DNA of 64,000 nt, taken from Magnolia sinica. Lineage: Eukaryota; Streptophyta; Magnoliopsida; Magnoliales; Magnoliaceae. The notes beneath the pieces are model-generated. The model was given only the letters and a program-made list of their open reading frames with translations. It was not told where the DNA came from and searched no databases. Positions within the stretch are counted from its first letter, which is position 1, and each line of letters opens with the position of its first letter. Below, piece after piece: positions 240 through 61,694 of the stretch. Location of the stretch: positions 83,294,862-83,358,861 of the forward strand of contig NC_080584.1 of NCBI RefSeq assembly GCF_029962835.1, in the 5' to 3' direction. The position numbers and the translations under genes are program-made.

Positions 240-1525
240 AAGATCCCCCTTCTATCATGTGGGGCCAAACTTTGATGTGAACTGTTCATCATGTTGGGTC
301 CACCTTTGTCATATCTTCAATGTGAACTGTCCATCATGTGGGGTTTATCTTTAATATAGACCATCCACCTTGTAATGCCCACCTTCCATGTGGGCTATCC
401 ATCGTATGGGGCCACCTTGGATGTGGGTTGCCCTTCATGTCAGACGTTGGATGTGGATCATCCATCATGCGAGGCCCACCTTTAATGTGGATCGTCTAGC
501 ATGCAGGGCCCAACTTCATAGTCTCCATCATGCTCAGCCACCTTGGATGTAGGCCATTCATCATAAGGAGCTGACCTTAGATGAGGACCGTCCATTACGT
601 GGGGCCCACCTTGATGTTGGACATCCATCATGTGAGGCCCACCGTCAATGTCAGTTGTCCATCATGTGTGGCCCACCTTTAAGGAACATGACCATCATTT
701 GGAGCCCACCTTTGATGTGAATTGTCCATCGTGTGGGCCTCCCTTCGTAGTGGGTTGTCTATCATGCATGACGGACCCGCCTTGGATGCAAATCATTCAT
801 CTTTAGGAGTTGACTTTTGATGTGGACCATCCATTATGTGAGGCCCACCTTGATGTGGGTCATCCATCCTGTGGGGCCCACCTGCCCATCATGTGGAACC
901 AATCTTTGATGTGGACCGTCCATCATGTAGGCCCCACCTTTGATGTGGATCGTCCATCATACAGTGCCCACCTTTGATGTGGATCGTCCATCATATAGTG
1001 CCCACTTTAGATGTGGGTCATCACCATTTGGGGCTGACCTTTGATGTGGACCATCAATCATGTGGGCCCACCTTGATGTGGACCATCCATCACGCGGGCC
1101 CACCTTGATGTGGATTATCCATTATGTGGGGCCCACCTTCAAAGTGGGCTAGGCCCGCTTTGGATGTGGGCCGTTCATCATTAGGGGCTGACCTTTGATG
1201 TGGACCATCCATTATGTGAGCCCACCTTGATGTGGGTCATCCATCATGTGGATTCCACCTTTGATGTGGGTTGTCAATAATGTAGGCTCCACCTTTGAAA
1301 TGTGGGTTGTCTATCATATGGGCCACTTTGGAATATGGACCATTCATTATTAGGGGCCGACCTTTAATGTGGATTGTCCATTATATGAGCCCACCTTGAT
1401 GTGGGTCATCCATCATGTGGGCCCATCTTTGATGAGGACCATCCATCGCATGGGCCCCACCTTTAATGTGGACAATCCATCATGCAGGGCTACCTTTGAT
1501 ATGGACCGTCCATCACATCGGGACA
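240..1525. repeat. Degenerate GGGCCCACC minisatellite
   Basis: The phrase CCATCATGTGGGGCCCACC followed by TTTGATGTGGACCGT recurs with many substitutions about every 34-45 bases, roughly 30 times. Short reading frames inside it are products of the repetition. The motif is the same GGGCCCACC/GTCCATC vocabulary found in the foldback transposons further along, so the array may have grown from one of their arms (inference). Confidence 0.85.
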
Positions 1526-17992: not shown

Positions 17993-20217
17993 ATGAAGAT
18001 GAGCAGAGGATCTTCTTCTGCTATTCTTCTGCTGCTGTTCTTTGTTTCTGCTGCAGCTGCTGCGCCAGCAGCTTCTCTGCCACGGCAGAGTTTCACCTGC
18101 ACTCGAAAGAGCAGATGCTTCCTTAAGAAGATCAGGTGCCCGCCCGAGTGCCCGCTAGCCAAACCACTGGAACCGAAAGCTAAAGGCTGCTTTGTCGATT
18201 GCAATTCACCCAAATGCGAAGCTATCTGCAGAAGTAAGAATCTCCAATCAACCTTCTCTTAGCCTTTTGAAAACAATGCCGTTTTGTCGACAATTTGTAT
18301 ATGTGGGGCCCACTTGATCTGGTGGACCCCATCTTGGCAATGTGGGTCATTCCTTGATATCCCCTCTATCAGATGATCTTAGCCATTTATCACAACCATT
18401 AGTCTAGAGTTAACAGGGCTACATTCTTCTAGTGTGGATATGACAGGAGTGTCTCCTGTCCACCATGGCCCCATAGTGGGGCCCACCCAGATCAACAGTT
18501 TAGAAAGACCAGAAGAATTGTTTTCCTATGATCTGAGGTGACTGGGATCTTTCTCCATGCGCAGGATCCTGTACATGTGGGGCCCACGGTTCCATCGAGT
18601 GAAAACCTTTGTAGAATTTTGTTCTCTCCCGACCGTCTATTTGGAAGCACCATATCCTATGGTCGCGATCTTCTAATCTGGAAGATTTCGACAACCCCAT
18701 CCATGGTGGGGCTCATTCGGATCACCAAACCATGGGTCCTACACAGCATTATTCATTTATTACTGACCATACGTCTGTTGATAAGTGGGCTGATAATCCC
18801 TCCTGATTCTGTTCCTCTGGTTCAATCTGCCTGTGTGACATTCCTACTTTCAGGTTTGATTTTCAGATGGTTGCCACCATCCATCAATTTCAAGCAATAT
18901 CTCCACATTCGTTCTTTTTTCTCGGATACATGATCAGAACTTCATCTGGGTTTGAATCCTACTGAAAGGTCCACTCACTAATAGATGATCAGAACTTCAT
19001 CTGGGTTTGAATCCTACTGAAAGGTCCACTCACTAACAGATGATCAGAACTTCATATGGGTTTGAATCCTACTGAAAGGTCCACTCACTAACAGATGATC
19101 AGTACTTCACCTGGGTTTGAATCCTACTGAAAGGTCGACTAACAGATGATCAGAACTTCATCTGGGTTTGAATCCTACTGAAAGGCCCACTAACAGATTA
19201 TCAGAATTTCATCTGGGTTTGAATCCTACTAAAAGGTCCACTAGAGATTAGAAAACAAGATGTTTGTTTTCTCCCATTGAGGAGATCGGCAAATAAAGAA
19301 ATGGTTGATATATTCAAGATAATTACGTATTTACAGTCTCAATTCATCCCATTTCATCAGATCTGGGATGTGATATGATTCCGAAGGATGAACTAGATGA
19401 TGCTAAGAAAAGTCTTTTTGTTGCAGATCGCAAGCCAAACTGCAACAGTCCTGGGGCTGCTTGTTTCGATCCCCGCTTCATCGGCGGAGACGGCATTGTC
19501 TTCTACTTCCATGGCAGGAGCGACGAGCATTTCAGCCTAATCTCTGACACCAACCTCCAAATCAATGCCCGTTTCATCGGCCTCCGACCCACTGGTAGAT
19601 CCCGAGACTACACATGGATTCAAGCACTAGGAATCATGTTCGGTTCCCATAAATTCGCCCTGGAAGCCAAACGGACTGCAAGATGGAATGATGAGGTGGA
19701 CCATCTCCAGTTCTCTTACAACGAGAAGCTGTTGATTATACCCGAAAGCCATCTCTCCGAGTGGAAGTCTTCAGACGATATTCTGACGGTGGAGAGGACA
19801 GCAAGCAGAAACAGCGTCACCGTCACTCTTGCTGAAATTGTGGAGATTTCTATAAATGTGGTCCCAGTGACTGAGGAAGACGATCGGGTCCACAACTACC
19901 AGATACCATCTAATGACTGCTTTGCGCACTTAGAAGTGCAGTTCAGATTCTTTGGCCTTTCTTCGAAAGTTGACGGTGTTATAGGACGAACTTACAGGCT
20001 GGACTACGAGAACCCGGCGAAGCCAGGGGTGGCGATGCCGATGGTCGGCGGGGAAGATGAGCACAGGACTTCGGTGCTCCTCTCTTCAGACTGCAGATCT
20101 TGCATTTTCTCTCCTGCTGATGGTGCAGCAGGAGAGAACTCGACGGCAATGGATTTCGGGACATTGGATTGCACCAGCACTCTAGGCAATGGAAGTGGAA
20201 TAGTGTGCAGGAAATGA
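17993..20217 (+). CDS. Secreted LEA-related / Root_cap-domain protein, two exons
   Basis: The coding sequence joins 17,993-18,233 and 19,427-20,217. The donor is AGAA|GTAAGA and the acceptor TTTTTGTTGCAG|ATCG; together they give 343 residues. Residues 1-23 form a signal peptide (hydrophobic [15 protein letters not shown]), so the product should be secreted. Residues 35-90 are cysteine-rich ([34 protein letters not shown]), followed by [17 protein letters not shown]. The C-terminal part around 240-308, with [16 protein letters not shown] and GEDEHRTS, is the Root_cap domain. The order matches Arabidopsis At5g54370-type 'LEA-related' proteins in length and layout. The biochemical role of the family is unknown; expression in root cap and other cell-wall settings has been reported. 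The frame is intact. The 1.19-kb intron holds a 55-bp tandem repeat. The first ATG was chosen because it directly precedes the signal peptide; a second Met two codons on is possible. Confidence 0.92.
18931..19243. repeat. Intronic minisatellite, six copies of about 55 bp
   Basis: TGATCAGAACTTCATCTGGG begins copies at 18,931, 18,986, 19,041, 19,096, 19,147 and 19,198. The first three steps are 55 bp and the last two 51 bp, because a CACT is missing. It lies wholly within the Root_cap intron. Confidence 0.95.
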
Positions 20218-23551: not shown

Positions 23552-26068
23552 TCACCTTCCTCGAGGATTCACCAGCTGCGAGAAGACTGCGCTGGTGGTC
23601 ACGTCTTCAGCATCATCATCGGTTCCTGAGTGCGCTACATCGATCATGTTTATGCTATTATCGAACGGTTGAAGCGGAATATCAGCAATATGATTTGTGC
23701 TGTTCTCATCAATGTCAGTGAGTGCGGAGGACGTCTCCTCAAGCTGGAGAGCGTACTCGAGATTCCACAGAACATCTCCCATAGTCGGCCGATCGACGCC
23801 TTGCTCCGCCAGGCATTTCTCAGCTGTTTCACCAAACTTCCTAAGGGATGCCGGACTTATCTTCCCCACCAAAGCTGGATCCATGATGTGGTCCAGCATA
23901 CCCTTCTTCTGCCAGGTCATTGCCCATTCTGCGATATTGACCTGCTCCCGCGGGAGAACGGGATTGAGGGCAGGCCGTGAGCAGAGGACTTCCATCAGAA
24001 CAACCCCGAAAGAGTAGACATCGGATTTCTCTGTCAGCTGTTGCCTTCGGAAGTACTCGGGATCTAGGTAGCCGAAGCTACCCTTGACAGCCGTGCTCAC
24101 ATGGGTCTGATCCAATGACGGGCCAGTCTTTGAGAGGCCAAAGTCTGCAACCTTAGCTACAAAGTTCTCATCCAAGAGAATGTTGGTGGTCTTCACGTCC
24201 CTGTGGATAATGCTCTGGGCTGCCCCAGTGTGAAGATAATGCAGCCCCCTTGCAGCTCCGATGCAAATTTCGAGCCGTTGTTTCCAAGAGAGTGATGGAA
24301 GTTCTGTACCGTAGAGATGGCTTCTCAGCGGCCCGTTCGCCATGTACTCGTAAACAAGAACCATCTCTGACCGCTCGTCGCAGTAGCCGATCAGAGAGAC
24401 CAAATGGCGATGGCGAAGCTTGGATAGCATCTCAATCTCGGTATGGAATTCGGCGAGTCCTTGCTCCGATCTGGGGTTCCCTCTCTTGATGGCCACATAT
24501 ATGCCGTCGTCGAGTGTCCCCTTGTAAACCTTACCGAACCCACCGACGCCAAGAAGCAGGCTCTCGTCGAACTTGTTGGTTGCGTCCATGATTTCCTGAA
24601 ACGTGAAGAGACGGCCGAGATTTGTGGAGGCCAAGGAGACGCAGCTTGCCGTCCCACTCTTCTGAGAGATTGTGGAACCTTTGGTCATGGTTTGGGAATT
24701 TCCATATAGAGGCAATGACAGCCATGGATGGCTGGGGTGAGTACTGGTCTTTGATTTCCGGGCCATGAAACACCACCAACACAGAGCCATAAATCCCATA
24801 GCAACTGCAGCTCCCACGACAGACCCGATTACAATTCCCGTCTTGCTCTTCTTGGAGCGTGATTTAAGAAGAAATCCATCGACAGGAGATGGCCCATCTA
24901 AGCTTCCCGCACCATTGCTGATTTTCATGATCTCCAATCCATTCAAAATTGCATTCGCGGTGTTGGCCATCACATCCGGGCCCACACTAACATACATTGT
25001 GCTAGAATTGGTCGAGGAATTGGATATGAAATCCTTGTAATATGGAACCGCCAAGCCGCCGGTCTTGCTAGAAAGATCCAAGCTCGCGATTGCAATGTCG
25101 GAATTGATATAGACATTGAAAACGAGATCATTCATGGCCATGCTGACTATATCGCAGAAGTGTAGGCGGACCAAGTAAACGAAGGATGGATCAACGGAGA
25201 AGACCCATGTGACATTGAAGTTCAAATTTGCAACGTTCGGATTTCCCATCGCCTCCGCAGTCGCGTAAACCAAATTCGGTGCCGTTTCGGCAGTCACTCC
25301 GGGAGGGTATTTTATCGTCCCTGGACTTGCAGACACATTCACGGCAGAGCTATTAACATGGAGGTACTTCACATCATTTTCCCAAGTTCTCCCAAGCGTA
25401 TCATTCTGAGGTGTAAGCAGTGGCCCTCCCATGTTCAACCGATAGATGGTCTCGAGAGCGACTTCAGAGAGGCCACTGAACGGAGTGGCCGGTGACAAAT
25501 CCAATGCCTGATCAGGAATCAAATAATCTGGGACTGAAACAACTTCAATTGCATTCACAAATGTTATGGAATTATTCGACGGCACGAAATTGATGGACAG
25601 CGAATCAGACGTCACATTGACAATATATTCCTTGAACAGATACGACTGATTCTGGTTCTTGAAGGTGAAGTTATTCAATAGGACGAAGTTTTCCGTGACG
25701 ACCGTGAGCGGAGCGGACCTCAGATCGTGGCCGGAATTGGGGAGAGGGTGGAAATAGAGGCGGACCCAATGCCGGCCCTTTTGCCGGATATCGAATTCAT
25801 AAGAAGACGGTTCGGTGAAAATCCGCAGTGACCGATAGATAGGAGATGGGGCACTGAAATCAGTGGCAGAGAAAACAGTATCTCCCTCACTTTTTAAGAG
25901 GAAGGAAGATTGGAATGAATCAGGAACAAAAGCCTGGCCTTGAAAGGAGACATTTTGTGAAGAGCCACAGGCAATTAGGAAACTGTCAACAGGATTGAAT
26001 GCAGCAGAAGAGCCATGAACAATGAAACCAAAGAACACAACAGCAATCACCAAACTCATCCTCATCAT
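23552..26068 (-). CDS. THE1: CrRLK1L receptor kinase, THESEUS1-like
   Basis: A single open frame encodes 838 residues; Arabidopsis THE1 has about 855. Residues 1-22 are a signal peptide. Residues 24-385 form the paired malectin-like ectodomain (FNPVDSFLIACGSS, RHWVRLYFHP, VPDYLIPDQALDLSP, YRLNMGGPLLTPQNDTLGR) with many N-glycosylation sites. Residues 411-434 are the membrane span. The kinase domain (about 490-770) has the glycine loop GVGGFGKV at 507-514, Lys528, HRD at 622-624 and DFG at 642-644, so it should be active. The tail TDDDAEDVTTSAVFSQLVNP is nearly identical to THE1. In Arabidopsis THE1 acts at the plasma membrane as a cell-wall-integrity sensor that restrains growth when cellulose is lacking, and binds RALF34. 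The match to THE1 is stronger than to FERONIA or HERK1 (from memory of those sequences). The coding part has no intron, as is usual for this family. Confidence 0.95.
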   Translation of the reverse strand: MMRMSLVIAVVFFGFIVHGSSAAFNPVDSFLIACGSSQNVSFQGQAFVPDSFQSSFLLKSEGDTVFSATDFSAPSPIYRSLRIFTEPSSYEFDIRQKGRHWVRLYFHPLPNSGHDLRSAPLTVVTENFVLLNNFTFKNQNQSYLFKEYIVNVTSDSLSINFVPSNNSITFVNAIEVVSVPDYLIPDQALDLSPATPFSGLSEVALETIYRLNMGGPLLTPQNDTLGRTWENDVKYLHVNSSAVNVSASPGTIKYPPGVTAETAPNLVYATAEAMGNPNVANLNFNVTWVFSVDPSFVYLVRLHFCDIVSMAMNDLVFNVYINSDIAIASLDLSSKTGGLAVPYYKDFISNSSTNSSTMYVSVGPDVMANTANAILNGLEIMKISNGAGSLDGPSPVDGFLLKSRSKKSKTGIVIGSVVGAAVAMGFMALCWWCFMARKSKTSTHPSHPWLSLPLYGNSQTMTKGSTISQKSGTASCVSLASTNLGRLFTFQEIMDATNKFDESLLLGVGGFGKVYKGTLDDGIYVAIKRGNPRSEQGLAEFHTEIEMLSKLRHRHLVSLIGYCDERSEMVLVYEYMANGPLRSHLYGTELPSLSWKQRLEICIGAARGLHYLHTGAAQSIIHRDVKTTNILLDENFVAKVADFGLSKTGPSLDQTHVSTAVKGSFGYLDPEYFRRQQLTEKSDVYSFGVVLMEVLCSRPALNPVLPREQVNIAEWAMTWQKKGMLDHIMDPALVGKISPASLRKFGETAEKCLAEQGVDRPTMGDVLWNLEYALQLEETSSALTDIDENSTNHIADIPLQPFDNSINMIDVAHSGTDDDAEDVTTSAVFSQLVNPRGR

Positions 26069-26071
26069 CTC

Positions 26072-34063: not shown

Positions 34064-34605
34064 GGGAACGGATTGGCCACTCCCCCTGACACCAGCCAAT
34101 GGCTGGTGGTCGGTGCTATGTGGGCCCCACAATGATGTATGTGTTTCATCCATGCCATTCATCCGTTTTTATAGGTCATTTTACGGTATGAGTCCAAAAA
34201 TGGGGTATATCCAAATCTCAAGTGGACCACATTACAGGAAACAGTGTTGAATGAGGGTCGACCATTAAAAACATTTTGGGGGCCACGAAAGTTTTGGATC
34301 AAGCTGATATTTGTTTTTTCTCTTCATCTGGGCCTGCATGACCTAATCAACAGATTGGGTGTCAAATAAACAGTATAGTGGGCCTTAGGAGGATTTTAAT
34401 GGTTGATATCCAATAATTATTATTTTCATGTGGTGTGGTCCACCTGAGATTTATATCCCTCTATTTTTTGGGATCAAACAATAAAATGATATGTAAAAAT
34501 GGATGAACGGAATGGATGAAACACATACATCATGTTAGGGCCCACAGAGCACCGACCATCAGCCACGGAGCTGGTGTCAGGGGGAGAGTAGCCAATTCGT
34601 TTCCC
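34064..34605. mobile_element. Foldback MITE, GGATTGGCY family
   Basis: Ends GGGAACGGATTGGCCACTCC and GTAGCCAATTCGTTTCCC are inverted. Flanking direct repeats AATAAATA agree over eight bases (34,056-34,063 and 34,606-34,613). It is in the same orientation class as the element at 33,083, only 0.5 kb away. Confidence 0.85.
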
Positions 34606-34798
34606 AATAAATACAGAAAAATGCACTGGGAACATAAATGCCCACACGTGTGCCAGCTAGGCACAAGCTTGCAGGAACCTGGACGTCGATAGGTGGGTCC
34701 CACTTTAAATGTACCTTAGGGAGATAATCCAGCGGCTGCAATTATCAACTTGTGGAACGATGAAATGGACGGTTAGGAAATCGGTTCTGTACTTTACG

Positions 34799-34880
34799 TG
34801 CATGCTTTTCTCAGCTAATGAGTAGGCCAGCCTGTCAACAGCAGATTCGGTGAAGCCGGAGAAATACCACTTCTGTGTGG
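34799..34880 (-). other. Exon-like fragment, unassigned
   Basis: On the - strand an acceptor-like CACCACACAG at about 34,881 opens a frame KWYFSGFTESAVDRLAYSLA that runs into a donor-like CAC|GTAAAG. The residue mix is unlike the surrounding repeats. I do not recognise a family. It may be an exon of the gene whose promoter and first exon were amplified further right, or chance. Confidence 0.25.
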
Positions 34881-34884
34881 TGGT

Positions 34885-35305
34885 GACCGTGGGGCCCACC
34901 TTGATATATATTCTGTATATCCACGCCGTCCATCCGTTTTTTCAGCTCAATTTAGGACATGAATGCCAAAAACAAAGTAGATCAAAATGTCAGGTGGACC
35001 ACACCAGATGAAACAGCGGGGAGTGAATGGAAACCCTAAAAAATCCCTTGTGGATCCTGCTGATATTTGTAATTTCCCTTAATTGAGGTCTGTGTGACAT
35101 TATCAACAGGTTGGATGGGAAATAAACACTACGGTGGGCCCTAGGAAGTTTTTAATGGTGTCTGTTCAATCAAAACTGTTTCCTATGGTGTGGTCGACCT
35201 GAGATTTGGATCTTCTTTATTTTGTGGGATATATAATAAAATGATCTGTAAAAATGGATGGATGGCTTGGATATACAACAAATATATCAATATAGGCCCC
35301 ACCGT
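34885..35305. mobile_element. Foldback MITE, GTGACNGTGGGGCC ends
   Basis: GTGACCGTGGGGCCCACCTT with TGATATAT at the left is mirrored by ATATATCAATATAGGCCCCA and CCGTCACGAC at the right. The inner arms GGTGGACCACACCAG and TGTGGTCGACCTGAG pair. Confidence 0.65.
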
Positions 35306-35324
35306 CACGACCTCACCAAAGTCG

Positions 35325-35405
35325 TGTTTTACATGCCCCACCGAATCCACTTTCCAGCCCGTCTTCGTACTTCAGCTGGACCGCAGCTTGAGGTTGTAAT
35401 ATTAC
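35325..35405 (-). other. Exon-like fragment after a splice acceptor
   Basis: On the - strand CTTTTATTCCAG is followed by about 70 bases open in two frames (one reads ILQPQAAVQLKYEDGLESGF) and then a donor-like CAT|GTAAAA. A diverged second copy lies at about 35,745-35,840, just before the first array unit. It lies downstream of the array's first-exon donors in the same strand, so it could be the ancestral second exon; the phases do not settle this. Confidence 0.3.
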
Positions 35406-35745
35406 TGGAATAAAAGGTTGACCCGACCCACTGTAAGTCTCGAGAGGTGCTTTTGAGAAGTTGAAATGACCTAAATGCCCTTACCTGTCTGTTTTTTCCA
35501 CACCCAGCTGGTAAAGAGTAGAATAGTGGGGCCCACCTGATGTACGTTGGACATTTGATGATTGGACCAAACGAAAAAATAGGACGCGGATTGACTGGAG
35601 ACACGGTTTGCCTGAAAGGTCCCATGGTCGGAAAATGTGGGGCCCACAAGGATGCTTACGACAAATCCACACCGTCCATCAGTTTCCCAAGACCGTTTTA
35701 GTATATGAGTTCAAAAATCAGGTAGATCCAAAACTTAGGCGGCCT
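35400..35745. repeat. Left copy of the direct repeat flanking the array
   Basis: The stretch with GGTTGACCCGACCCACTG, GAAATGACCTAAATGCCCTT, CACACCCAGCTGGT and GGACGCGGATTG recurs in the same order at 43,585-43,945, on the far side of the tandem array. Confidence 0.85.
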
Positions 35746-36104
35746 CACCAAAGTTGGTATTTAGATCGCCCCCACCGAATTCACTTTCCAGCCGGTCTTC
35801 GCTCTACAGCTCGACCGCAGCTTGAGGTTGTAATCTTACATGAAAGAGTCCAGGTCCTTTGTTTGCGTCCAAGCAAGCAAAATTGTGGTTGTTGCAATCT
35901 AATTGGACCATACTATTACACACTGCATTGCTGATTGCCACGGATCAATGATAATATAGGAAAGTAAGAAAGACATGCTTGACGCAAATAAAAGATCATT
36001 ACTGAAAAAAAAAGAAAAAGAAAAAAGAAAAAAAGAAAGAAGAGAGCTTCCGATTGGGCTAGGATTTATTAAAAAGGAAAAAAAGGAGAGAAATCCAGAC
36101 TTAC

Positions 36105-36470
36105 TTGGGTTTCAACGGTGCTCGATCAGCATTGGATTGAAAGCTACTTGCAGTTGCATGTGATTTCTCTATTTCTTCTCTGTTTTCTTCTTTCTCTTCC
36201 GCATTCTCTCCCGTTTCCTCTATGCTTTCTTCTTTCTCTTCTCCTTCTCTCCCGTCTTGAAACTAGAATCCTTCTCCTCCTCCTTCTTTTCCATCTTGAA
36301 ACTAGAATCCTTCTTCTCCTTCTCCCCCATTTTGAAACTAGAATCATTATCCTCTTCCTTATCCCCAATTCTGAAACTCGACTCGTTACGATCGAATTGA
36401 GCCGAGTTCTCAACTCGCTCTCCTACTTTCGGAAACACGAATCGTTTTACTCTCGACTCGAAACTCACTC
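36105..36470 (-). other. Array unit 1, first-exon-like frame
   Basis: The donor here reads CCAA|GTAAG. The frame contains MGEKEKKDSSFKMEKKEEEK but shifts before the donor, so it could not give the same product as its siblings. The TATA-like tract is at 36,544-36,552. Confidence 0.4.
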
Positions 36471-37127
36471 TACTTCTCCTTCTCCAAAAAACTCGAATCG
36501 TTTTTTTCTCGACTCGTTAAAAATCGTATTGAATTAGAAAGACTTTTAAATAGAACATCTCAAGTAAGTTACCATTTAAGCGGGAATACTCGTATGATTT
36601 TGAAACCTCCTTTCTTTCTAGACACGTGCCGATATTTTAAATATACTGTCTCAAGTTAGTTATTTTGAGCGGGAATATTCACACGCTAATCAATAGGTTG
36701 GTTTTGATCCAACCGTTGAGATAAATCTTGATTTTTATCTAACTGGTCCAAATTAATTATAATTATAGCTTTAATTTTTCGATTTTGAAACTTCCAGATA
36801 TTATCAGGAATTATGTGCACAAAACTAAGGCATATCAAATGCTAAAGTGGACCACACCCAATAATAAGCTTGGTTGCATTAAATGCATAATGCCTTAAAC
36901 GCTAAGAATCATCTGTGATGTGGTCCATTTCAGCGTTGAGTATTCCTAATATTTGCGTACATAGCTTAAAGTGATCAGAGAAAAGGGATAGACGGCATGG
37001 ATAAACAGATACATGAAGGTGGGCCCGCCCACGGAACTGCCCGTTCGGGGCTAGAGACGGGCAGGGTAGGACGCAACCCAGACCAGCTTTCGATTGGGCT
37101 TGTTTCAATTTTTTTTAAAAAGATTCT

Positions 37128-37287
37128 GAATCCTCTGTTTGCGTCAAAGCAGAAAAATTGTACGGTTGTTGTAATCTAATTGGACTGTATTATTACACAC
37201 TGTATTTAATACCGCATTGCTGAATGCCACAGACCAATGATGATACAGGAAAGCAGGAAAGTAATGCTTGACGTAAACAGAGGATCC
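37128..37287. mobile_element. GGATCCTCTGTTTG MITE, array copy
   Basis: The left end GAATCCTCTGTTTGCGTCAA is mirrored by TTGACGTAAACAGAGGATCC at the right, about 160 bp apart. The same element stands at 35,850, 38,363, 39,629, 40,811, 42,127, 43,417, 59,635 and 60,871, and inverted at 61,131-61,287. Because it sits at the same place in every unit, it inserted before the amplification. Confidence 0.8.
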
Positions 37288-37381
37288 TTACTCACACAAA
37301 AGAAAAGGAAAAAAAGGGAGAGAGCTTTCGAATGGGATAAGATCTATTAGAAAGAAAAAAGGGAGAGAAATTCGAACTTAC

Positions 37382-37611
37382 CTGGGTTTCAACAATACTC
37401 GATCAACACTAGATTGAAAGCTACTTGTAGTTGCAGGAGATCTCTCTATTTCCTCTCTTCTTTCTTCTTTCTTTTCCTCCTTCTCCCTCGTTTCCTCTCT
37501 GCTTTCTTCTTTCTCTTCCTCCTTCTCCCCCGTCTTGAAACTAGAATCCTTCTCCTCTTCATTCTCCCCCGTCTTGAAACTAGAATCATTCTCCTCTTCC
37601 TTATCCCCCAT
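37382..37611 (-). other. Array unit 2, best-preserved first-exon-like frame
   Basis: An ATG at 37,611 opens 76 codons that reach the donor CCCAG|GTAAGT at 37,382 in phase 2. The product begins MGDKEEENDSSFKTGE, repeats a 13-14-residue DSSFKTGEKEEEK motif, passes through a Glu/Arg/Lys-rich stretch and ends SSFQSSVDRVLLKP. It is highly charged and probably disordered or coiled. I do not recognise a family. A TATA-like tract lies at about 37,779-37,786, 170 bp upstream of the ATG. No downstream exon is proven. Confidence 0.45.
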
Positions 37612-38604
37612 TCTGAAATGACTCGTTAATATCGTATTGAGTCAAGTTCTTCACTCGCTCTCCTACTCTTGGAAGCACGAATCGTTCTACTTTCGACTCG
37701 AAACTTACTCTACTCCTCCAGAAAACTCAAATCGTTCTTTTCTCGACTCGTTAAAGATCGTATCGAGTCAGAAAGGCTTTTAAATAGACCATCTCAAGTT
37801 ACTTACCATTTAAGCGGAAATACTTGCACAATTTTAAAACCTCGTTTCTTTCTAGACACATGTCGAGATTTTAAATATACCGTCTCAAGTTAGTAATTTT
37901 GAGCGGGAATATTTGCACGCTAATCAGTAGGTTGGTTTTGATCCGACCGTTGAGATAAATCTTATTTTTATCTAACCGGTCCAGATTAATTATAATTATA
38001 GCGAGAATTTTTCGATTTTGAAACCTCCAGACATTATAGGGAATTATGTGCACAAAACTGAGGCAAATCCAACGCTAAAAGTGGACCACACCTAATAATA
38101 AGCTTGGTTGCATTAAATGCACAAAGCATTAAACGCCAAGAATCATCTGTGGTGTGGTCCATTTCAGCGTTTTGTATTCGTAATATTTGTGTACATAGCT
38201 TAAAATGATCAGAGAAAAGGGATGGATGGCATGGATAAACAGATACATGAAGGTGGGCCCGCCCACGGAATTGCCTGTTCGGGGTTAGAGACAGGTAGGG
38301 TAGGACGCAACCCAGACTAGCTTCCGATTGGGCTTGTATCAATTTTTTTTAAAAAAAAGTTTGAATCCTCTGTTTGCATCAAAGCAGAAAAATCGTGGTT
38401 TTTGCAATCTAATTGGACCATATTATTACACTCTGCATTTAATACTACATTACTGAATGCCACGGACCAATGATAATACAGGAAAGTAGGAAAGTCATGC
38501 TTGATGCAAACAAAGGATCATTACTCATAAAAAAAAAAGGAGGAAAGCTTCCAATTGGGCTAAGATCTATTAGAAAGAAAAAATGGAGAGAAATCCGGAC
38601 TTAC

Positions 38605-38840
38605 CTAGGTTTCAACAGTACTCGATCAGCACTGGATTGAAAGCTACTTGCAGTTGCAGGAGATCTCTCTATTTCCTCTCTGCTTTCTTCTTTCTCTTCC
38701 TCCTTCTCCCTCGTCTTGAAACTAGAATACTTTTCCTCCTCCTTCTCTCCCGTCTTGAAACTAGAATCCTTCTCCTCCTCCTTCTCCCCCGTCTTGAAAC
38801 TAGAATCCTTCTCCTCCTCCTTATCTCCAATTTTGAAACT
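38605..38840 (-). other. Array unit 3, first-exon-like frame lacking the ATG
   Basis: The unit keeps three DSSFKTGEKEEEK repeats and the donor CCTAG|GTAAGT, but the codon at the start position of its siblings reads ATT in place of ATG. The TATA-like tract is at about 39,006-39,013. Confidence 0.4.
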
Positions 38841-39869
38841 CGACTCGTTAAAATCGTATTAAGTTGAGTTCTCGACTCCCTCTCCTACTCTCGGAAACAT
38901 GAATTGTTCTACTTTCATCTCGAAACTCATTATACTCCTCATTCTCCCGAAAACTCGAATCGTTCTTTTCTCGACTCGTCAAGGTCATATTGAGTCAGAA
39001 AACCTTTTAAATAGACCATCTCAAGTTAGTTACCATTTAAGCGGGAATACTTACATGATTTTGAAACCTCATTTCTTTCTAGACACATGCCGAGATTTTA
39101 AATATACCATCTCAAGTTACTTATTTTGAGCGGGAATATTCGCACGCTGATCAGTAGGTTGGTTTTGATCCAACCGTCGAGATAAATCTTGATTTTTTTT
39201 ATCTAACCAGCCCAAATTAATTGTAATTATGGCAGGAATTTTTCGATTTTGAAACCTCCAGACATTATTGGGAATTATGTGCACAAAACTAAGGCAGATC
39301 CAATGCTAAAGTGGATCACACCTAATAATAAGCTTGGTTGCATTAAATGCACAAAGCATTAAACGCCAAGAATCATCTGTGGTGTGGTCCATTTTGGCGT
39401 TGAGTATTCGTAATATTTGTGTATATAGCTTAAAATGATTGGAGAAAAGGGATGGACGACATGGATAAACAGATACCTGAATGTGCCCCCCCCGAATTGC
39501 CCATTCGTGGCTAGAGATGGGCAGAGTAGGGCGCAATCGGCGTCTTCCACCTAGACCAACTACCGATTGAGCTTGTATCAATTAGAATTTAAAAAAGAAA
39601 AAAAAAAGAAAAAAGAAAAAAAAAGTACGAATCCTCTGTTTGCGTTAAAGCAGGAAAATTGTGGTTGTTGTAATCTAATTAGAACGTATTATTACACACT
39701 GCATTTAATATTGCATTGCTGACTGCCACGGACCAATGACGATAAAGGAAAGCAGGAAAGTCATGCTTGACCCAAACAGAGGATCCTTACTCCAAAAAAA
39801 AAAGGGAGAGAGCTTCCGATTGGACTAGGATCTATTAGAAAGAAAAAAGGGAGAGAAATCCGGGCTTAC

Positions 39870-40069
39870 CTGGGTTTCAACAGTACTCGATCAACATTGG
39901 ATTGAAAGCTACTTACAGTTGTAGGTGATCTCTCTATCTCGTCTCTGCTTTCTTCTTTCTCTTCCTCCTTCTCCCCCGTCTTCAAACTAGAATCCTTCTC
40001 CTCCTCCTCCTCCCCTATCTTGAAACTAGAATCCTTCTCCTCCTCCTTATCCCTCATTCTAAAACTCAA
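39870..40069 (-). other. Array unit 4, first-exon-like frame
   Basis: A frame from 40,069 reads MSFRMRDKEEEKDSSFKIGE and continues to the donor at 39,870 through SSFQSNVDRVLLKP, in the same phase as unit 2. It has fewer charged repeats than unit 2. TATA-like tract at about 40,226-40,233. Confidence 0.45.
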
Positions 40070-41049
40070 ATCGTCAAGATCGTATTAAGTCGAGTTCTTG
40101 ACTAGTTTTCCTACTCTCGAAAACATGAATCGTTCTACTTTCGACTCGAAACTCACTTTACTCCTCCAGAAAACATGAATCGTTATTTTCTCGACTTATT
40201 AAAGATCGTATTGAGTCAAAAAGGCTTTTAAATAGACCATCTCAAGTTAGTTACCATTTAAGCGGGAATACTCGCACGATTCTGAAACCTCCTTTCTTTC
40301 TAGACACGTGCTAAGATTTTAAATATACCGTCTCAAGTTAGTTATTTTGAGCGGGAATATTCGCGCGCTGATCAGTAGGTTGATTTTGATCCAACCGCCA
40401 AGATAAATCTTGATTTTTACCTAACCGGTCTAGATTAATTATAATTATGACGAGAATTTTCGATTTTCAAACCTCTAGACATTATCGGAAATTATGTGCA
40501 CAAAACTAAGGCAAATCCAATGCTAAAGTGGAACACACCCAATAATAAGCTTGGTTGCATTAAATGCACAAAGCATTAGTGGTCCATTTCGGCGTTGAGT
40601 ATTGCTAATATTTGTGTACATAACTTAAAATGATCGGAGAAAAGGTATGGACGGCATGGATAAACAGATACATGAAGGTGAGCCCGCCCACGGAATTGCC
40701 CGTTCGGGGCTAGAGACGGGCAGGGTAGGACGCAATCGGCATCGTCCACCCAGACTAGCTTTCGATTGGGCTTTTATCAATTGGAAATTTTTTTTTAAAA
40801 AAAGAAGTCTGGATCCTCTGTTTGCGTTAAAGCAAGAAAATCATGGCTATTGTAATCTGATTGGACCGTATTATTGCACACTGCATTTAATATTGTATTG
40901 TTGACTGCCACAGACCAATGACGATATAGGAAAGCAGGAAAGTCATGCTTGACGCAAACAGAGGATCCTTACTCATAAAAAAAGGCAGAGAGCTTCCAAT
41001 TGGGTTAGGATCTATTAGAAAGAAAAAAGGGAAAGAAAATCGGGCTTAC

Positions 41050-41478
41050 CTGGGATTCAACAGTACTCAATCAGCACTGGATTGAAAGCTACTTGCAGTT
41101 GCAGGAGATCTCTCTATTTCCTCTCTTCTTTCTTCTTTCTCTTCCTCCTTCTCCCCTGGTTCCTCTATGCTTTCTTCTTTCTCTTCCTCCTTCTCCCGCT
41201 GTTTCCTCTCTGCTTTCTTCTTTCTCTTCCTCCTTCTCCCCTGTCCTGAAACTAGAATCCTTCTCCTCCTCCTTCTCCCGTGTCTTGAAACTATAATCCT
41301 TCTCCCCCGTCTTCAAACATGAATCCTTCTCATCCTCCTTATCCCCCATTCTAAAACTCGACTCGTTAAGATCGTATTGAGTCAAGTTCTCGACTCGCTC
41401 TCCTACTTTCGGAAACACGAATCGTTCTACTTTCGACTCGAAACTCACTCTACTCCTTCTCCTGGAAACATGAATCAT
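41050..41478 (-). other. Array unit 5, first-exon-like frame
   Basis: A long - strand frame starts at 41,478 (MIHVSRRRSRVSFESKVERF) and includes MGDKEDEKDSC and DYSFKTREKEEEK, but ends at 41,089 in NREISCNCK, a different frame from that of units 2 and 4, before the donor at 41,050. The Glu/Arg-rich part is expanded. Confidence 0.4.
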
Positions 41479-42368
41479 TCTTTTCTTGACTCGTTAAAAA
41501 TCGTATTGAGTCAGAAAGTCTTTTAAATAGACCATCTCAAGTTAGTTACCATTTAAGCGGGAATACTTGCACGATTTAAAACCTCCTTTCTTTCTAGACA
41601 CATGTCGAGATTTTAAATATACCGTCTCAAGTTAGTTATTTTGAGTGGGAATATTCGCACGCTGATCAGTAGGTCGGTTTTGATCCAACCGTCAAGATAA
41701 ATCTTGAATTTTATTTAACTAGTCTAGATTAATTATAATTATGGCGGGAATTTTTCGATTTTGAAACCTCCAGACATTATCGGGAATTATGTGCACAAAA
41801 CTGAGGTAGATCCAACGTTAAAGTGGACCACACCCAATAATAAGCTTGGTTGCATTAAATGCACAAAGCATTAAATGCCAAGAATCATTTGTGGTGTGGT
41901 CCATTTCGGCGTTGAGTATTCATAATATTTGTGTACATAGCTTAAAATGATCAGAGAAAAGGGATGGACGACATGGATAAATAGAAACATGAAGGTGGGC
42001 CCACCCACGGAATTGCCCGTTCGGGGCTAGAGACGGATAGGGTAGGACGCAATCGGCATCCTCCAACCAGACCAGCTTCCGATTGGGCTTGTATCAATTA
42101 GAAATTATTTTTTTGAAAAAAAGTTTGGATCCTCCGTTTGTGTCAAAGCAGGAAAATCGTGGTTGTTGCAATCTAATTGGACCGTATTATTACACACTGC
42201 ATTTAATTAATACTGCATTACTAACTGCCACGGACCAATGACGATATAGGAAAGCAGGAAAGTCATGCTTAATGCAAACAGAGGATCCTTACTCACAAAA
42301 AAAGGAGAGAGCTTCCGAATAGGCTAGGATCTATTAGAAAGAAAAAAAGGAGAGAAATCCGAGCTTAC

Positions 42369-42649
42369 CTGGGACTCAACGGTACTCAATCAGCACTAGA
42401 TTGAAAGTTACCTGCAGTTGAAGGAAATGTCTATATTTCCTCTCTGCTTTCTTCTTTCTATTCCTCCTTCTCTTCCGTTTCCTCTCTGCTTTCTTCTTTC
42501 TCTTCCTCCTTCTCCCCCGTCCCGAAACTGGAATCCTTCTCCTCCTCATTCTCCCTCATCTTGAAACTTGAATCCTTCTCCTCCTCCTTCTCACCCGTCT
42601 TCAAAATAGAATCCTTCTCCTCCTCCTTATCCCCTATTCTAAAACTCAA
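42369..42649 (-). other. Array unit 6, first-exon-like frame
   Basis: The frame from 42,649 reads MSFRIGDKEEEKDSILKTGE and carries three charged repeats, but closes at 42,458 before the donor at 42,369. TATA-like tract at about 42,812-42,820. Confidence 0.4.
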
Positions 42650-43584
42650 CTCGTAAAGATCTTATTGAGTTAAGTTCTCGACTCACTCTCCTACTCTCGG
42701 AAACACAAATCGTTTTACTTTCGACTCAAAACTCACTCTAATCCTCATTCTCACAGAAATATGAATTGTTCTTTTCTCAACTTGTTAAAGATCGTATTAA
42801 GTCAGAAAGACTTTTAAATAGACCATCTCAAGTTAGTTACCATTTAAGCGGGAATACTCGCACGATTTTAAAGCCTCCTTTCTTTTTAGACATATCGAGA
42901 TTTTAAATATACCGTCTCAAGTTAGTTATTTTGAGTGGGAATATTCGCATGCTGATTAGTAGGTCGGTTTTGATCCAACCATCGAGATAAATCTTGAATT
43001 TTATCTAACCAGTCCAAAGTAATTATAATTATGATGGAAATTTTCTGATTTTGAAACCTCTAGACATTATCGGGAATTATGTGCACAAAACTGAGGCAGA
43101 TCCAACGCTAAAGTGGACCACACCCAATAATAAGCTCGGTTGCATTAAATGCACAAAGCATTAAACGCCAAGAATCATTTGTGGTGTGGTCCATTTCAGC
43201 ATTGAGTATTCATAATATTTGTGTACATAGCTTAAAATGATTAGAGAAAAGGGATGGACGGCATGGATAAACAGATACATGAAGGTGGGCCCGCCCACGA
43301 AACTGCCCGTTCGAGGCTAGAGACGGGGAGGGTAGGACGCAATTGGCGTCCTCCATGCAGACCAACTTCCGATTGGGCTTGTATCAATTAGAATTTTTTT
43401 TTAAAAAAAAGAGTCTGGATCCTCTGTTTGTATCAAAGCAGGAAAATCGTGGTTGTTGCAATCTAATTGGACCGTATTATTACACACTGCATTTAATACT
43501 GCATTGCTGATTGCTACGGACCAATGACGATATAGGAAAGCAGGTAAGTCATACTTGACGTAAATTGAGGTTCCTTACTTTACA

Positions 43585-43945
43585 GGAAAATAGGTTGACC
43601 CGACTCACTAAAAGTCTTGAGTGGTGCTTTTGAGAGGTTGAAATGACCTAAATGCCCTTACTTATCTTTTTTTTTTTTTGCCACACCCAGCTGGTGAAGT
43701 GTAGAATAGTGGGGCCCACCTGATGTGTGTTTGACATTTGATGATTGGACCAAACAAAAAAGAGGACGCGGATTGCCTGGAGACATGGCTTGCCTATGTC
43801 CCCTTGCTGCACCAAAGGTTTTGTGGTCGGAAGATGTGGGGCCCACAAGGATGCCTATGACAAATCCACACCGTCCATCCATTTCCTAAGACCATTCTAT
43901 TATAGGAGTCTAAAAATTAGGTAGGTCTAAAACTTAGGTGGGCCA
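43585..43945. repeat. Right copy of the direct repeat flanking the array
   Basis: Matches 35,400-35,745 in order and direction (GGTTGACCCGACTCACTA, GAAATGACCTAAATGCCCTT, CACACCCAGCTGGTGAAG). The right part is itself the start of a foldback copy. Confidence 0.85.
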
Positions 43946-59405: not shown

Positions 59406-59410
59406 TGATT

Positions 59411-61070
59411 TCAGCGTTGAGTATTCTTAATATTTGTGTACATAGCTTAAAATGATTGGAGAAAAGGGATGGATGGCATGGATAAATAGATACATGAAGG
59501 TGGGCCCGACCACAGAACTGCCCGTTTGGGGCTAGAGACGGGCAGGGTAGGACGCAATCGGCGTCCTCTACCCAGACCAGCTTCCGAATGGGATTGTATC
59601 AATTAGATATTATTTTTTTCAAAAAAAAGAGTTGGGATCCTCTGTTTGCGTCAAAGCAGAAAAATTGTGGTTGTTGCAATCTAATTGGACCGTATTATTA
59701 CACACTACATTTAATACTGCATTGCTGACTGCCAAGGACCAATGACGATGAAGGAAAGCAGGAAAGTCATGCTTGACACAAACAAAGGATCCTTACTCAA
59801 AAAAAAAGAAGGGAGAGAAGGGGGAAAGAAATTTGGGCTTACCTGGGATTCAAAAGTACTCGATCAGCACTGGATTGAAAGCTACTTGCAGTTGCAGGAG
59901 ATCTCTCTATTTCCTCACTGCTTTCTTCTTTCTCTTCCTCCTCCCCTGTCTTGAAACTAGAATCATTCTCCTCCTCCTCCCACGTCTTGAAACTAGAATC
60001 CTTCTCCTCTCCTTGTCCCCCGTCTTGAAACTAGAATCTTTCTCCTCCTTCTCTCCCGTCTTGAAACTAGAATCATTCTTCTCCTCCTTATCCCCCATTC
60101 TAAAACTCGACTCGTTAAGATCGTATTAAATCAAGTTTTTAACTCGCTCTTCTACTCTCGGAAACACGAATTGTTCTACTTTCAACTCGAAACTCACTCC
60201 TCCTCCCAAAAACACGAATCGTTCTTTTCTCGACTCGTTAAAGATCTTATTGAGTTAGAAAGGCTTTTAAATAGACCATCTCAAGTTAGTTACCATTTAA
60301 GCGGGAATACTCGTACGATTTTGAAACCTCCTTTCTTTCTAGACACGTACCGAGATTTTAAATATATCATCTCAAGTTAGTTATTTTGAGCGGCAATATT
60401 CGCACGCTGATCAGTAGGTCGGTTTTGATCCAATCGCCGAGATAAATCTTGATTTTTATCAAACCGGTCCAGATTAATTATAATTATGGCGGGAATTTTC
60501 CAATTTCAGAACCTCCAGACATTATCAGGAATTATGTGCACAAAACTGAGGCAGATCCACCGCTACAGTGGACTACACCGAATAATAAGCTTGATTGCAT
60601 TAAATGCACAAAGCATTAAACGCCAAGAATCATCTGTGGTGTGGTCCATTTTAGCGTCGAGTATTCCTAATATTTGTGTACATAGCTTAAAATGATCGGA
60701 GAAAAGGGATGGCCGGCGTGGATAAACAGATACATGAAGGTGGGCCCGCCCACAGAACTGCCCGTTTGGGGCTAGAGACGGGCAGGGTAGGACGCAATCG
60801 GCGTCCTCCACCCAAACCAGCTTTCGAGATTGGGGTTGTATTAATTAGAAATTAAAAAGAAAAAAAGTTTGGATCCTCCGTTTCTGTCAAAGCAGGAAAA
60901 TCGTAGTTGTTGCAATCTAATTAGACCGTATTATTACACACTACATTTAATATTGCATTGTTGATTGCCATGGACCAATGATGATATAAGAAAGCTGCTT
61001 GATGTAAACAAAGGATCCTTACTCAAAAAAGAAAAAAGAAAAGGAGAGAGCTTCCGATTGGGCTAGGATC
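59411..61070 (-). repeat. Second part-array of the ~1.25-kb unit
   Basis: It starts inside a unit (TTCAGCGTTGAGTATTCTTA), passes MITEs at 59,635-59,792 and 60,871-61,018 (1,236 bp apart), and stops at a palindrome centred on about 61,071. One complete unit plus parts of two are present, about 16 kb from the main array and in the same orientation. Confidence 0.88.
59843..60098 (-). other. Part-array first-exon-like frame
   Basis: The frame from 60,098 starts MGDKEEKNDSSFKTGEKEEK and repeats DSSFKTG, but leaves the donor phase before 59,843. TATA-like tract at about 60,266-60,273. Confidence 0.4.
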
Positions 61071-61072
61071 TA

Positions 61073-61694
61073 ATCCTAGCCCAATTGGAAGCTCTCTCCC
61101 TTTTCTTTTTTTTTCTTTTTTTTGAGTAATGATCCTCTGTTTGCGTCAAGCATGACTTTTCTGCTTTCCTATATCGTCATTGGTCCGTGGCAGTTAGCAA
61201 TGCAGTATTAAATGCAGTGTGTAATAATACGGTCCAATTAGATTGCAACAGCCACAATTTTCCTTCTTTGACGTGAATAGAGGATCCAGACTCCTTTTTT
61301 TTTTTTTTTTTTTTATAAAGTCTTTCTGAATCAATACGATCTTTAACGAGTCGAGAAAAGAACGATTCGTGTATCTTGGAGAAGGAGGAATAGAGTGACT
61401 TTCAAGTTGAAAGTAGAACGATTCGTGTTTCCGAGAGTAGGAGTGCGAGTCGTGAACTAAACTCAATACGATCTTAACAAGTCGAGTTTTAGAATGGGGG
61501 ATAAGGAGGAGGAGAAGGATTCTAGTTTCAAGATGGGGGAGAAAGAGAGGGATTCTAGTTTCAAGACGGGAGAGGAGGAGGAGGAGAATGATTCTAGTTT
61601 CAAGACGGGAGAGAAGGGGGGAGAAGGGGGAGGAGAAGGATTCTAATTTCAAGACGGGAGAAAAGGATGGGGAGAATGATTCTAGTTTCAAGAA
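61073..61694 (+). repeat. Inverted copy of the array unit, head to head with the part-array
   Basis: ATCCTAGCCCAATTGGAAGC mirrors GCTTCCGATTGGGCTAGGAT just to the left. The MITE follows inverted (61,131-61,287), then the GACTCG-type leader and ATGGGGGATAAGGAGGAG at about 61,496 on the + strand with DSSFK repeats. Between the MITE and the leader, the donor and exon end are missing. The copy is joined directly to segmental duplication copy B. Confidence 0.85.

What the first reader, a model, noticed from the sequence alone, without database searches (positions are those of the whole stretch)
35850..43575. Tandem amplification of a promoter plus first exon, without the rest of the gene
Seen: six units of 1.18-1.32 kb, each with a TATA-like TATTTAAAAG, a leader, a Lys/Glu-rich frame starting MGDKEEE in the better copies, and a splice donor AG|GTAAG at the same place. 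The frame and the donor agree in phase in units 2 and 4. No unit contains a later exon. Repeated donor-bearing first exons could act as alternative starts for one downstream gene, as a source of exon-only transcripts, or as a dead by-product of unequal exchange. I recognise no protein family for the exon.
Basis: partly seen in the sequence, partly recalled or inferred. Interest (0 to 1): 0.85.

Follow-up and report, generated by a model that had tools for sequence, protein, structure and literature searches.

The report
Promoter-exon array inside a composite transposon
Six tandem copies of a promoter and probable first exon sit between short mobile elements, look like the inside of one large composite transposon insertion, and have decayed like silenced DNA instead of serving as alternative gene starts.

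Summary
In detail: six direct units of 1.18-1.32 kb, read on the minus strand, each with TCTATTTAAAAG, a leader, a Lys/Glu-rich frame and a GTAAG donor. Every unit begins with a MITE-like element (170-bp consensus, terminal inverted repeats 24/26) and a seventh copy closes the array, so it is MITE-(spacer-MITE)x6, 35846-43580. Only the two outermost ends touch foreign DNA, and there TACATGAAA / TACAGGAAA flank it (8/9; other lengths 3-12 match in at most 4 positions). A duplicate of the flank 430 bp upstream lacks the insert. This is the signature of one Mutator-type (9-bp) insertion. A second, rearranged cluster lies at 59408-61693. Units are 86-91% identical and near star-like. C-to-T type changes hit CG (15.0%) and CHG (15.6%) sites more than CHH (5.6%), as expected of silenced plant transposons. 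The exon shows no purifying selection by nonsynonymous/synonymous counts. Frames are broken in units 1, 5, 6 and b1; unit 3 lost its ATG. Best reading: a promoter plus first-exon fragment trapped between MITEs, multiplied in tandem, moved as a macrotransposon, then silenced. Parent gene unidentified. All 12 WTTCCCGC (E2F-like) sites of the window lie in the units.

The parts
35837..35845 (.). left copy of the 9-bp target-site duplication, TACATGAAA
   Evidence: 8 of 9 match to the right copy, other lengths 3-12 give at most 4 matches
35846..43580 (.). whole composite insertion, MITE-(spacer-MITE)x6, 7735 bp
43581..43589 (.). right copy of the 9-bp target-site duplication, TACAGGAAA
35308..35750 (+). 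duplicate of the flanking sequence without the insert (related empty site)
   Evidence: left flank matches 84 of 100, right flank 305 of 373 positions, meeting at the insertion point
35846..36004 (+). MITE copy A1 (outer left), with a 12-bp internal deletion
43411..43580 (+). MITE copy A7 (outer right), closes the array
35847..37112 (-). unit 1 as aligned: TATA 36554, frame broken, ATG lost, donor AAGTAAG at 36106
37113..38346 (-). unit 2: TATA 37788, open frame 37611-37378 (MGDKEEE), donor CAGGTAAG 37384
38347..39612 (-). unit 3: TATA 39015, open frame but ATG lost, donor AGGTAAG at 38606
39613..40794 (-). unit 4: TATA 40236, open frame 40057-39866 (MRDKEEE), donor CAGGTAAG 39872
40795..42110 (-). 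unit 5: TATA 41531, ATG present, frame shifted, donor CAGGTAAG 41052
42111..43400 (-). unit 6: TATA 42822, ATG lost, stops in frame, donor CAGGTAAG 42371
59408..61693 (-). second cluster: partial unit, full unit b1 (59619-60852), partial unit, then an inverted copy with its promoter deleted

Best explanation
A MITE of Mutator type (A, 170-bp consensus) came to lie beside a fragment S holding a host promoter, a probable first exon and the start of its intron. Duplication gave A-S-A. The outermost inverted repeats of such a composite were used as the ends of one large transposon (macrotransposon). The A-S unit was multiplied in tandem within a short time, either before insertion (for example on a circle) or by rapid exchange in place, and the block stands at this site with a 9-bp duplication. 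It was then silenced by DNA methylation and has decayed without selection. Shown: tandem structure, MITE at each unit border, outer 9-bp duplication, paralogous empty site, CG/CHG decay pattern, no excess of synonymous changes in the exon. Inferred: Mutator superfamily, order of events, host-gene origin of S, methylation as the cause of the decay pattern.
For: TIRs match in 24 of 26 positions of the consensus MITE; ten copies aligned, internal ones flanked by A-rich tracts, only the two outer flanks of the array differ. Outer flanks match 8/9 at exactly 9 bp; random 9-mer pairs from the surrounding DNA reach this with frequency 0.0003. A duplicate of the flank lacks the insert. Near-star relations: terminal branches 4.4-7.3%, and unit b1 of the second cluster is 86.6-88.8% identical to array units, against 86.0-90.6% among these. 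C>T/G>A changes at CG 111/740, CHG 96/617, CHH 132/2347 cells; CG and CHG each differ from CHH with p below 1e-13, and both exceed CHH in each of six parts of the unit. Exon nonsynonymous observed/expected 44/44.5, synonymous 13/15.8, stops 4/3.5. Macrotransposons that carry up to about 100 kb between Ac/Ds ends are mentioned in PMC3260210 (passage).
Against: No transposase gene seen, no second insertion of this composite with its own duplication, and no genome to search. TIRs of 26 bp are short against the 50-200 bp called typical of MULEs in PMC3276141 (passage). The star is not perfect: residual 0.0045 against 0.0031 +/- 0.0006 in star simulations, a fraction 0.018 of 1000 as large, and distance rises with separation in the array (rho 0.54, nominal p 0.036, pairs not independent), so some later exchange is likely. 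Third codon positions carry more changes than expected (28 against 19.3; first 14 against 22.6, second 19 against 21.9), a coding-like tilt, although the changes are not preferentially synonymous. No unmethylated control region was analysed for the decay pattern. The second cluster has no recognised duplication and irregular ends. The exon matched no family.
Confidence: 0.72

Rival explanations
1. Tandemly arrayed TRIM or other LTR retroelement: the 170-bp repeat is a short LTR and the 1.1-kb spacer its internal region, giving L7I6.
For: The same architecture L-(I-L)n bounded by one target duplication is reported as common for TRIMs and LTR elements in plants (PMC4717578 and PMC11899658, passages).
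Against: The repeat has 24/26 inverted termini GAGT...ACTC rather than TG...CA; the duplication is 9 bp, and at 5 bp only 2 of 5 match; the best match to a recalled initiator-tRNA primer site is 9 of 12 in units 2, 3 and 6 (in 3 and 6 at the same place, inside the 170-bp repeat and not beside it) and 8 of 12 in the others.
Confidence: 0.08
2. Alternative promoters and first exons that splice to a downstream gene on the minus strand, for example the malectin-like receptor kinase at 23555-26071.
For: TATA unchanged in 7 of 7 units and GTAAG present in 7 of 7; the kinase ORF is on the same strand; third codon positions change more than expected.
Against: No shortage of nonsynonymous changes in the exon, broken frames in units 1, 5 and 6, silenced-type decay, about 10 kb to the kinase, and no acceptor exon recognised.
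Confidence: 0.05
3. Local unequal crossing-over of a promoter-exon block at its native gene, with MITEs only as passengers.
For: Slight excess similarity of near units.
Against: The flanks are continuous with a duplicate that lacks the array, and its borders sit at MITE ends with a 9-bp duplication; a second cluster exists elsewhere.
Confidence: 0.07
4. S is not a host-gene piece but the 5' end of an autonomous relative of the transposon itself.
For: No known family matched by the exon; promoter and exon occur only together with the MITE in this window.
Against: S lies between complete MITEs, not inside their inverted repeats, and contains part of another repeat of this genome.
Confidence: 0.08

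Closest known systems
Macrotransposons (Ac/Ds pairs of maize)
   Same: Two elements of one family act as outer ends and move the DNA between them; seen as one passage in PMC3260210
   Different: Here the ends look Mutator-type, the ends are MITEs, and the interior is a regular tandem array
Pack-MULE elements
   Same: Mutator-type ends, 9-bp duplication, gene-like fragment inside (PMC13317346 and PMC3276141, passages)
   Different: Cargo lies between complete MITEs rather than between the two inverted repeats of one element, and is repeated six times
Tandem CMITE arrays of corals
   Same: Full-size MITEs in tandem, one example with gaps between them (PMC2872659, passages)
   Different: piggyBac-type TTAA elements of about 100 bp; no promoter-exon spacer in the passages seen
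Tandemly arrayed TRIMs and LTR elements
   Same: Repeat-(interior-repeat)n with one outer target duplication (PMC4717578, PMC11899658, passages)
   Different: 4-6 bp duplications and direct LTR ends; here 9 bp and inverted ends
E2F-site amplification by transposons in Brassicaceae
   Same: MITEs, MULE-type among them, multiply E2F motifs (PMC12595863, passage)
   Different: Here the motifs lie in the carried promoter, not in the MITE, and binding is untested

Membership tests
Mutator-like (MULE) MITE | 9-bp (to 10-bp) target-site duplication | tested here: met
   8/9 at 9 bp, at most 4 matches at other lengths 3-12
Mutator-like (MULE) MITE | terminal inverted repeats | tested here: met
   24 of 26 in the consensus, starting GAGT
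Mutator-like (MULE) MITE | TIR of 50-200 bp as in typical MULEs | tested here: not met
   26 bp; typical range from a PMC3276141 passage. I therefore claim only Mutator-type by its duplication, not a typical MULE
Mutator-like (MULE) MITE | relationship to a MULE transposase | not testable with these tools
   no genome held; of the 20 window ORFs of 120 aa or more 10 were scanned and none is a transposase
Pack-MULE | identified host-gene fragment inside one element's TIRs | tested here: not met
   cargo lies between complete MITEs and the parent gene was not found
Macrotransposon | outermost ends of two elements bound by one target duplication | tested here: met
   with paralogous empty site
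Macrotransposon | movement as a unit observed | not testable with these tools
   needs a second haplotype or species
Tandemly arrayed TRIM / LTR element | TG..CA direct terminal repeats, 4-6 bp duplication, primer-binding site beside the LTR | tested here: not met
Protein-coding first exon in use | purifying selection on the frame | tested here: not met
   nonsynonymous 44 observed/44.5 expected, synonymous 13/15.8, stops 4/3.5 in 46 codons; third positions do carry more changes than expected, 28/19.3
E2F-regulated promoter | in vivo core TCCCGCC upstream of TATA | tested here: inconclusive
   core present in units 5 and b1 only; 2 further sites elsewhere in the window. Looser WTTCCCGC: 12 of 12 window sites inside units. 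Core from a PMC5464667 passage

The most novel reading that the evidence does not exclude
A MITE-bounded macrotransposon that tandemly multiplies a cell-cycle (E2F-type) promoter with its first exon and splice donor. On landing beside a gene it would add several S-phase promoters and donor-bearing exons at once, or act as a sink for E2F proteins, before methylation shut it down. The family would be a plant mechanism for moving whole promoter batteries.
Probability: 0.13. Interest if true: 0.7.

Novelty: new variant of a known kind. Interest (0 to 1): 0.42.

Why it matters
Plant transposons are known to carry gene fragments (PMC13317346, passages). Here a regular six-fold battery of promoter, exon and donor appears to have moved as one block between MITE ends. 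If the family is widespread and was once expressed, it would show how regulatory DNA can be multiplied and dispersed in one step. The near-star divergence with a methylation-like decay pattern also offers a test of how such arrays form and die.

Tried and rejected
Parent gene: Pfam on three exon ORFs (units 2, 4, 5) gave only sub-threshold matches, best YL1 at E 0.017 and 15.7 bits against a cut-off of 29.2; solved-structure search of unit 2's exon gave none; a text search for the exon's first residues found no paper. Related DNA: one exact-pattern scan each of viral and prokaryote genome contigs and a distant search of plasmids found nothing, as expected for plant nuclear DNA. RNA families at gathering score and tRNAs: none in the window. 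LTR/TRIM reading rejected on termini, duplication length and primer site. A perfect-star burst is not kept: star simulations reach the observed misfit in a fraction 0.018 of 1000. Selection on the exon not supported by nonsynonymous/synonymous counts, with the third-position tilt told above. The open frame itself is somewhat more than composition gives: dinucleotide shuffles of unit 2's exon are open in frame 1 in 1.6% and in any frame in 4.2% of 5000, and most internal minisatellite periods are multiples of three (39, 42, 75, 27, 66, 36, 33; but also 43 in unit 5 and 74 and 49 in the second cluster), so a coding ancestor remains likely. TATA conservation in 7 of 7 was considered as a sign of use but is weak at this divergence. 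Genome-wide copy number, expression and species name could not be obtained; the plant looks like a magnoliid only by recalled resemblance of its GGGCCCACC repeats.
Full report
Observation. The window at 35.8-43.6 kb holds six direct units at spacings of 1.18-1.32 kb, 86.0-90.6% identical to each other. Read on the minus strand, each has TCTATTTAAAAG (identical in 6 of 6 units and in unit b1), 179-187 bases from there to the start-codon position in six of the seven (in unit 3 the motif search landed on a later repeat), a Lys/Glu-rich frame with minisatellites of mostly 39 and 42 bp, and a donor, AGGTAAG in units 2-6 and b1 and AAGTAAG in unit 1. An ATG-to-donor open frame exists only in units 2 and 4; unit 3 is open without ATG; units 1, 5, 6 and b1 are broken. 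The frame's stop codon TAA lies inside the donor, so agreement of frame and donor is weak evidence of splicing.

What borders the units. Each unit starts with an element (170-bp consensus) whose ends are inverted repeats, 24 of 26 positions. Ten copies were aligned: seven in this array, three in the second cluster. A seventh copy closes the array, so the structure is MITE-(spacer-MITE)x6. Internal copies are flanked by A-rich tracts; only the left side of the first and the right side of the last touch other DNA. There, 35837-35845 TACATGAAA and 43581-43589 TACAGGAAA match in 8 of 9 positions, while the other lengths from 3 to 12 give at most 4 matches. Random 9-mer pairs from the surrounding DNA reach 8/9 with frequency 0.0003.

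Empty site. The flanks are continuous with a duplicate at 35308-35750 that has no insert: the left flank matches it in 84 of 100 and the right flank in 305 of 373 positions, meeting at the insertion point. Thus the 7735-bp block 35846-43580 is an insertion. A 9-bp duplication with GAG-type inverted ends fits the Mutator superfamily (PMC3276141 passages), though the inverted repeats are short and no transposase was seen.

Second cluster. At 59408-61693 lie a partial unit, a full unit (b1), a further partial unit and an inverted copy that lost its promoter. The repeat is therefore not confined to one place. Its genome-wide number is unknown because no genome is held.

Age and fate. Distances among the seven units fit a near-star with branches of 4.4-7.3%, and b1 is no further from array units than they are from one another. 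The fit is not perfect: a fraction 0.018 of 1000 star simulations is as bad, and near units are slightly more alike, so limited later exchange or short internal branches exist. Against the majority consensus, C>T or G>A changes are found in 111 of 740 CG cells, 96 of 617 CHG cells and 132 of 2347 CHH cells; other changes at these sites number 12, 18 and 62; changes of any kind are found in 90 of 2527 A and 78 of 2364 T cells. CG and CHG exceed CHH in each of six parts of the unit. Raised CG and CHG decay is what established knowledge expects of methylated plant transposons; I ran no unmethylated control region. The consensus has CpG observed/expected 0.93, so the ancestor was not yet depleted. 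In 46 exon codons (11 at the start, 35 at the end, gapped cells skipped), 44 nonsynonymous, 13 synonymous and 4 stop changes compare with 44.5, 15.8 and 3.5 expected from the units' own non-exon rates; by codon position 14, 19 and 28 compare with 22.6, 21.9 and 19.3. The third-position excess is coding-like, but the changes are not preferentially synonymous. The repeat-rich middle of the exon was left out because it does not align reliably.

Promoter content. WTTCCCGC occurs 12 times in the window against 2.6 expected, and 12 of 12 lie in the units, upstream of the TATA; as the units are copies these are not independent. For the looser WTTSSCSS the consensus has three in 266 bp upstream of the TATA (reached by 0.2% of 1000 shuffles), two of them in an internal duplication. 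The in vivo E2F core TCCCGCC, named in PMC5464667 (passages), is present in units 5 and b1 only. E2F control of the parent promoter is a lead, not a result. Transposon-borne multiplication of E2F motifs is known in Brassicaceae (PMC12595863 and PMC13317346, passages).

Mechanism. I take the block to be a macrotransposon: the outer ends of two MITEs used as the ends of one transposon, with a multiplied promoter-exon segment between MITEs. Ac/Ds macrotransposons of up to about 100 kb are mentioned in PMC3260210 (passage), tandem MITE arrays exist in corals (PMC2872659 passages), and LTR elements form look-alike arrays (PMC4717578, PMC11899658 passages). In ten text searches of an open-access library I saw no title or abstract that combines these features; several listings were cut (for instance 20 of 150 and 12 of 44), and of nine papers I saw passages only. 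Whether the tandem growth preceded insertion or followed it cannot be told here.

Verdict. The feature is real and its form is unusual, but it most likely is a dead, silenced mobile composite and not a set of alternative first exons.

Noticed in passing
window 23555-26071 (-): Single 839-aa frame with Malectin_like and kinase domains (receptor kinase of the CrRLK1L type, name recalled).
   Followed up: partly
window 19309-20214 (+): 302-aa frame with a Root_cap domain; residues 8-46 show a sub-threshold Ycf2 match.
   Followed up: no
window 34120-35300 and elsewhere: A GGGCCCACC-ended repeat of about 0.4 kb; part of it lies inside each spacer upstream of the promoter, and that part matches 18 stretches outside the two clusters.
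   Followed up: partly
window 451-1518: Diverged minisatellite of about 33-34 bp built on GTGGACCATCCATCATG..GGGCCCACC.
   Followed up: no
window about 61072: Fold-back junction where the second cluster turns into an inverted copy.
   Followed up: no
internal MITEs of the array, both sides: A sequence of about 33 bp (AGCTTCCGATTGGGCT...ATTAGAAA) stands on both sides of the internal MITEs in direct orientation, in two variants that keep to their side, so it seems to predate the amplification; the copy behind the MITE is missing in b1. Origin unexplained.
   Followed up: no
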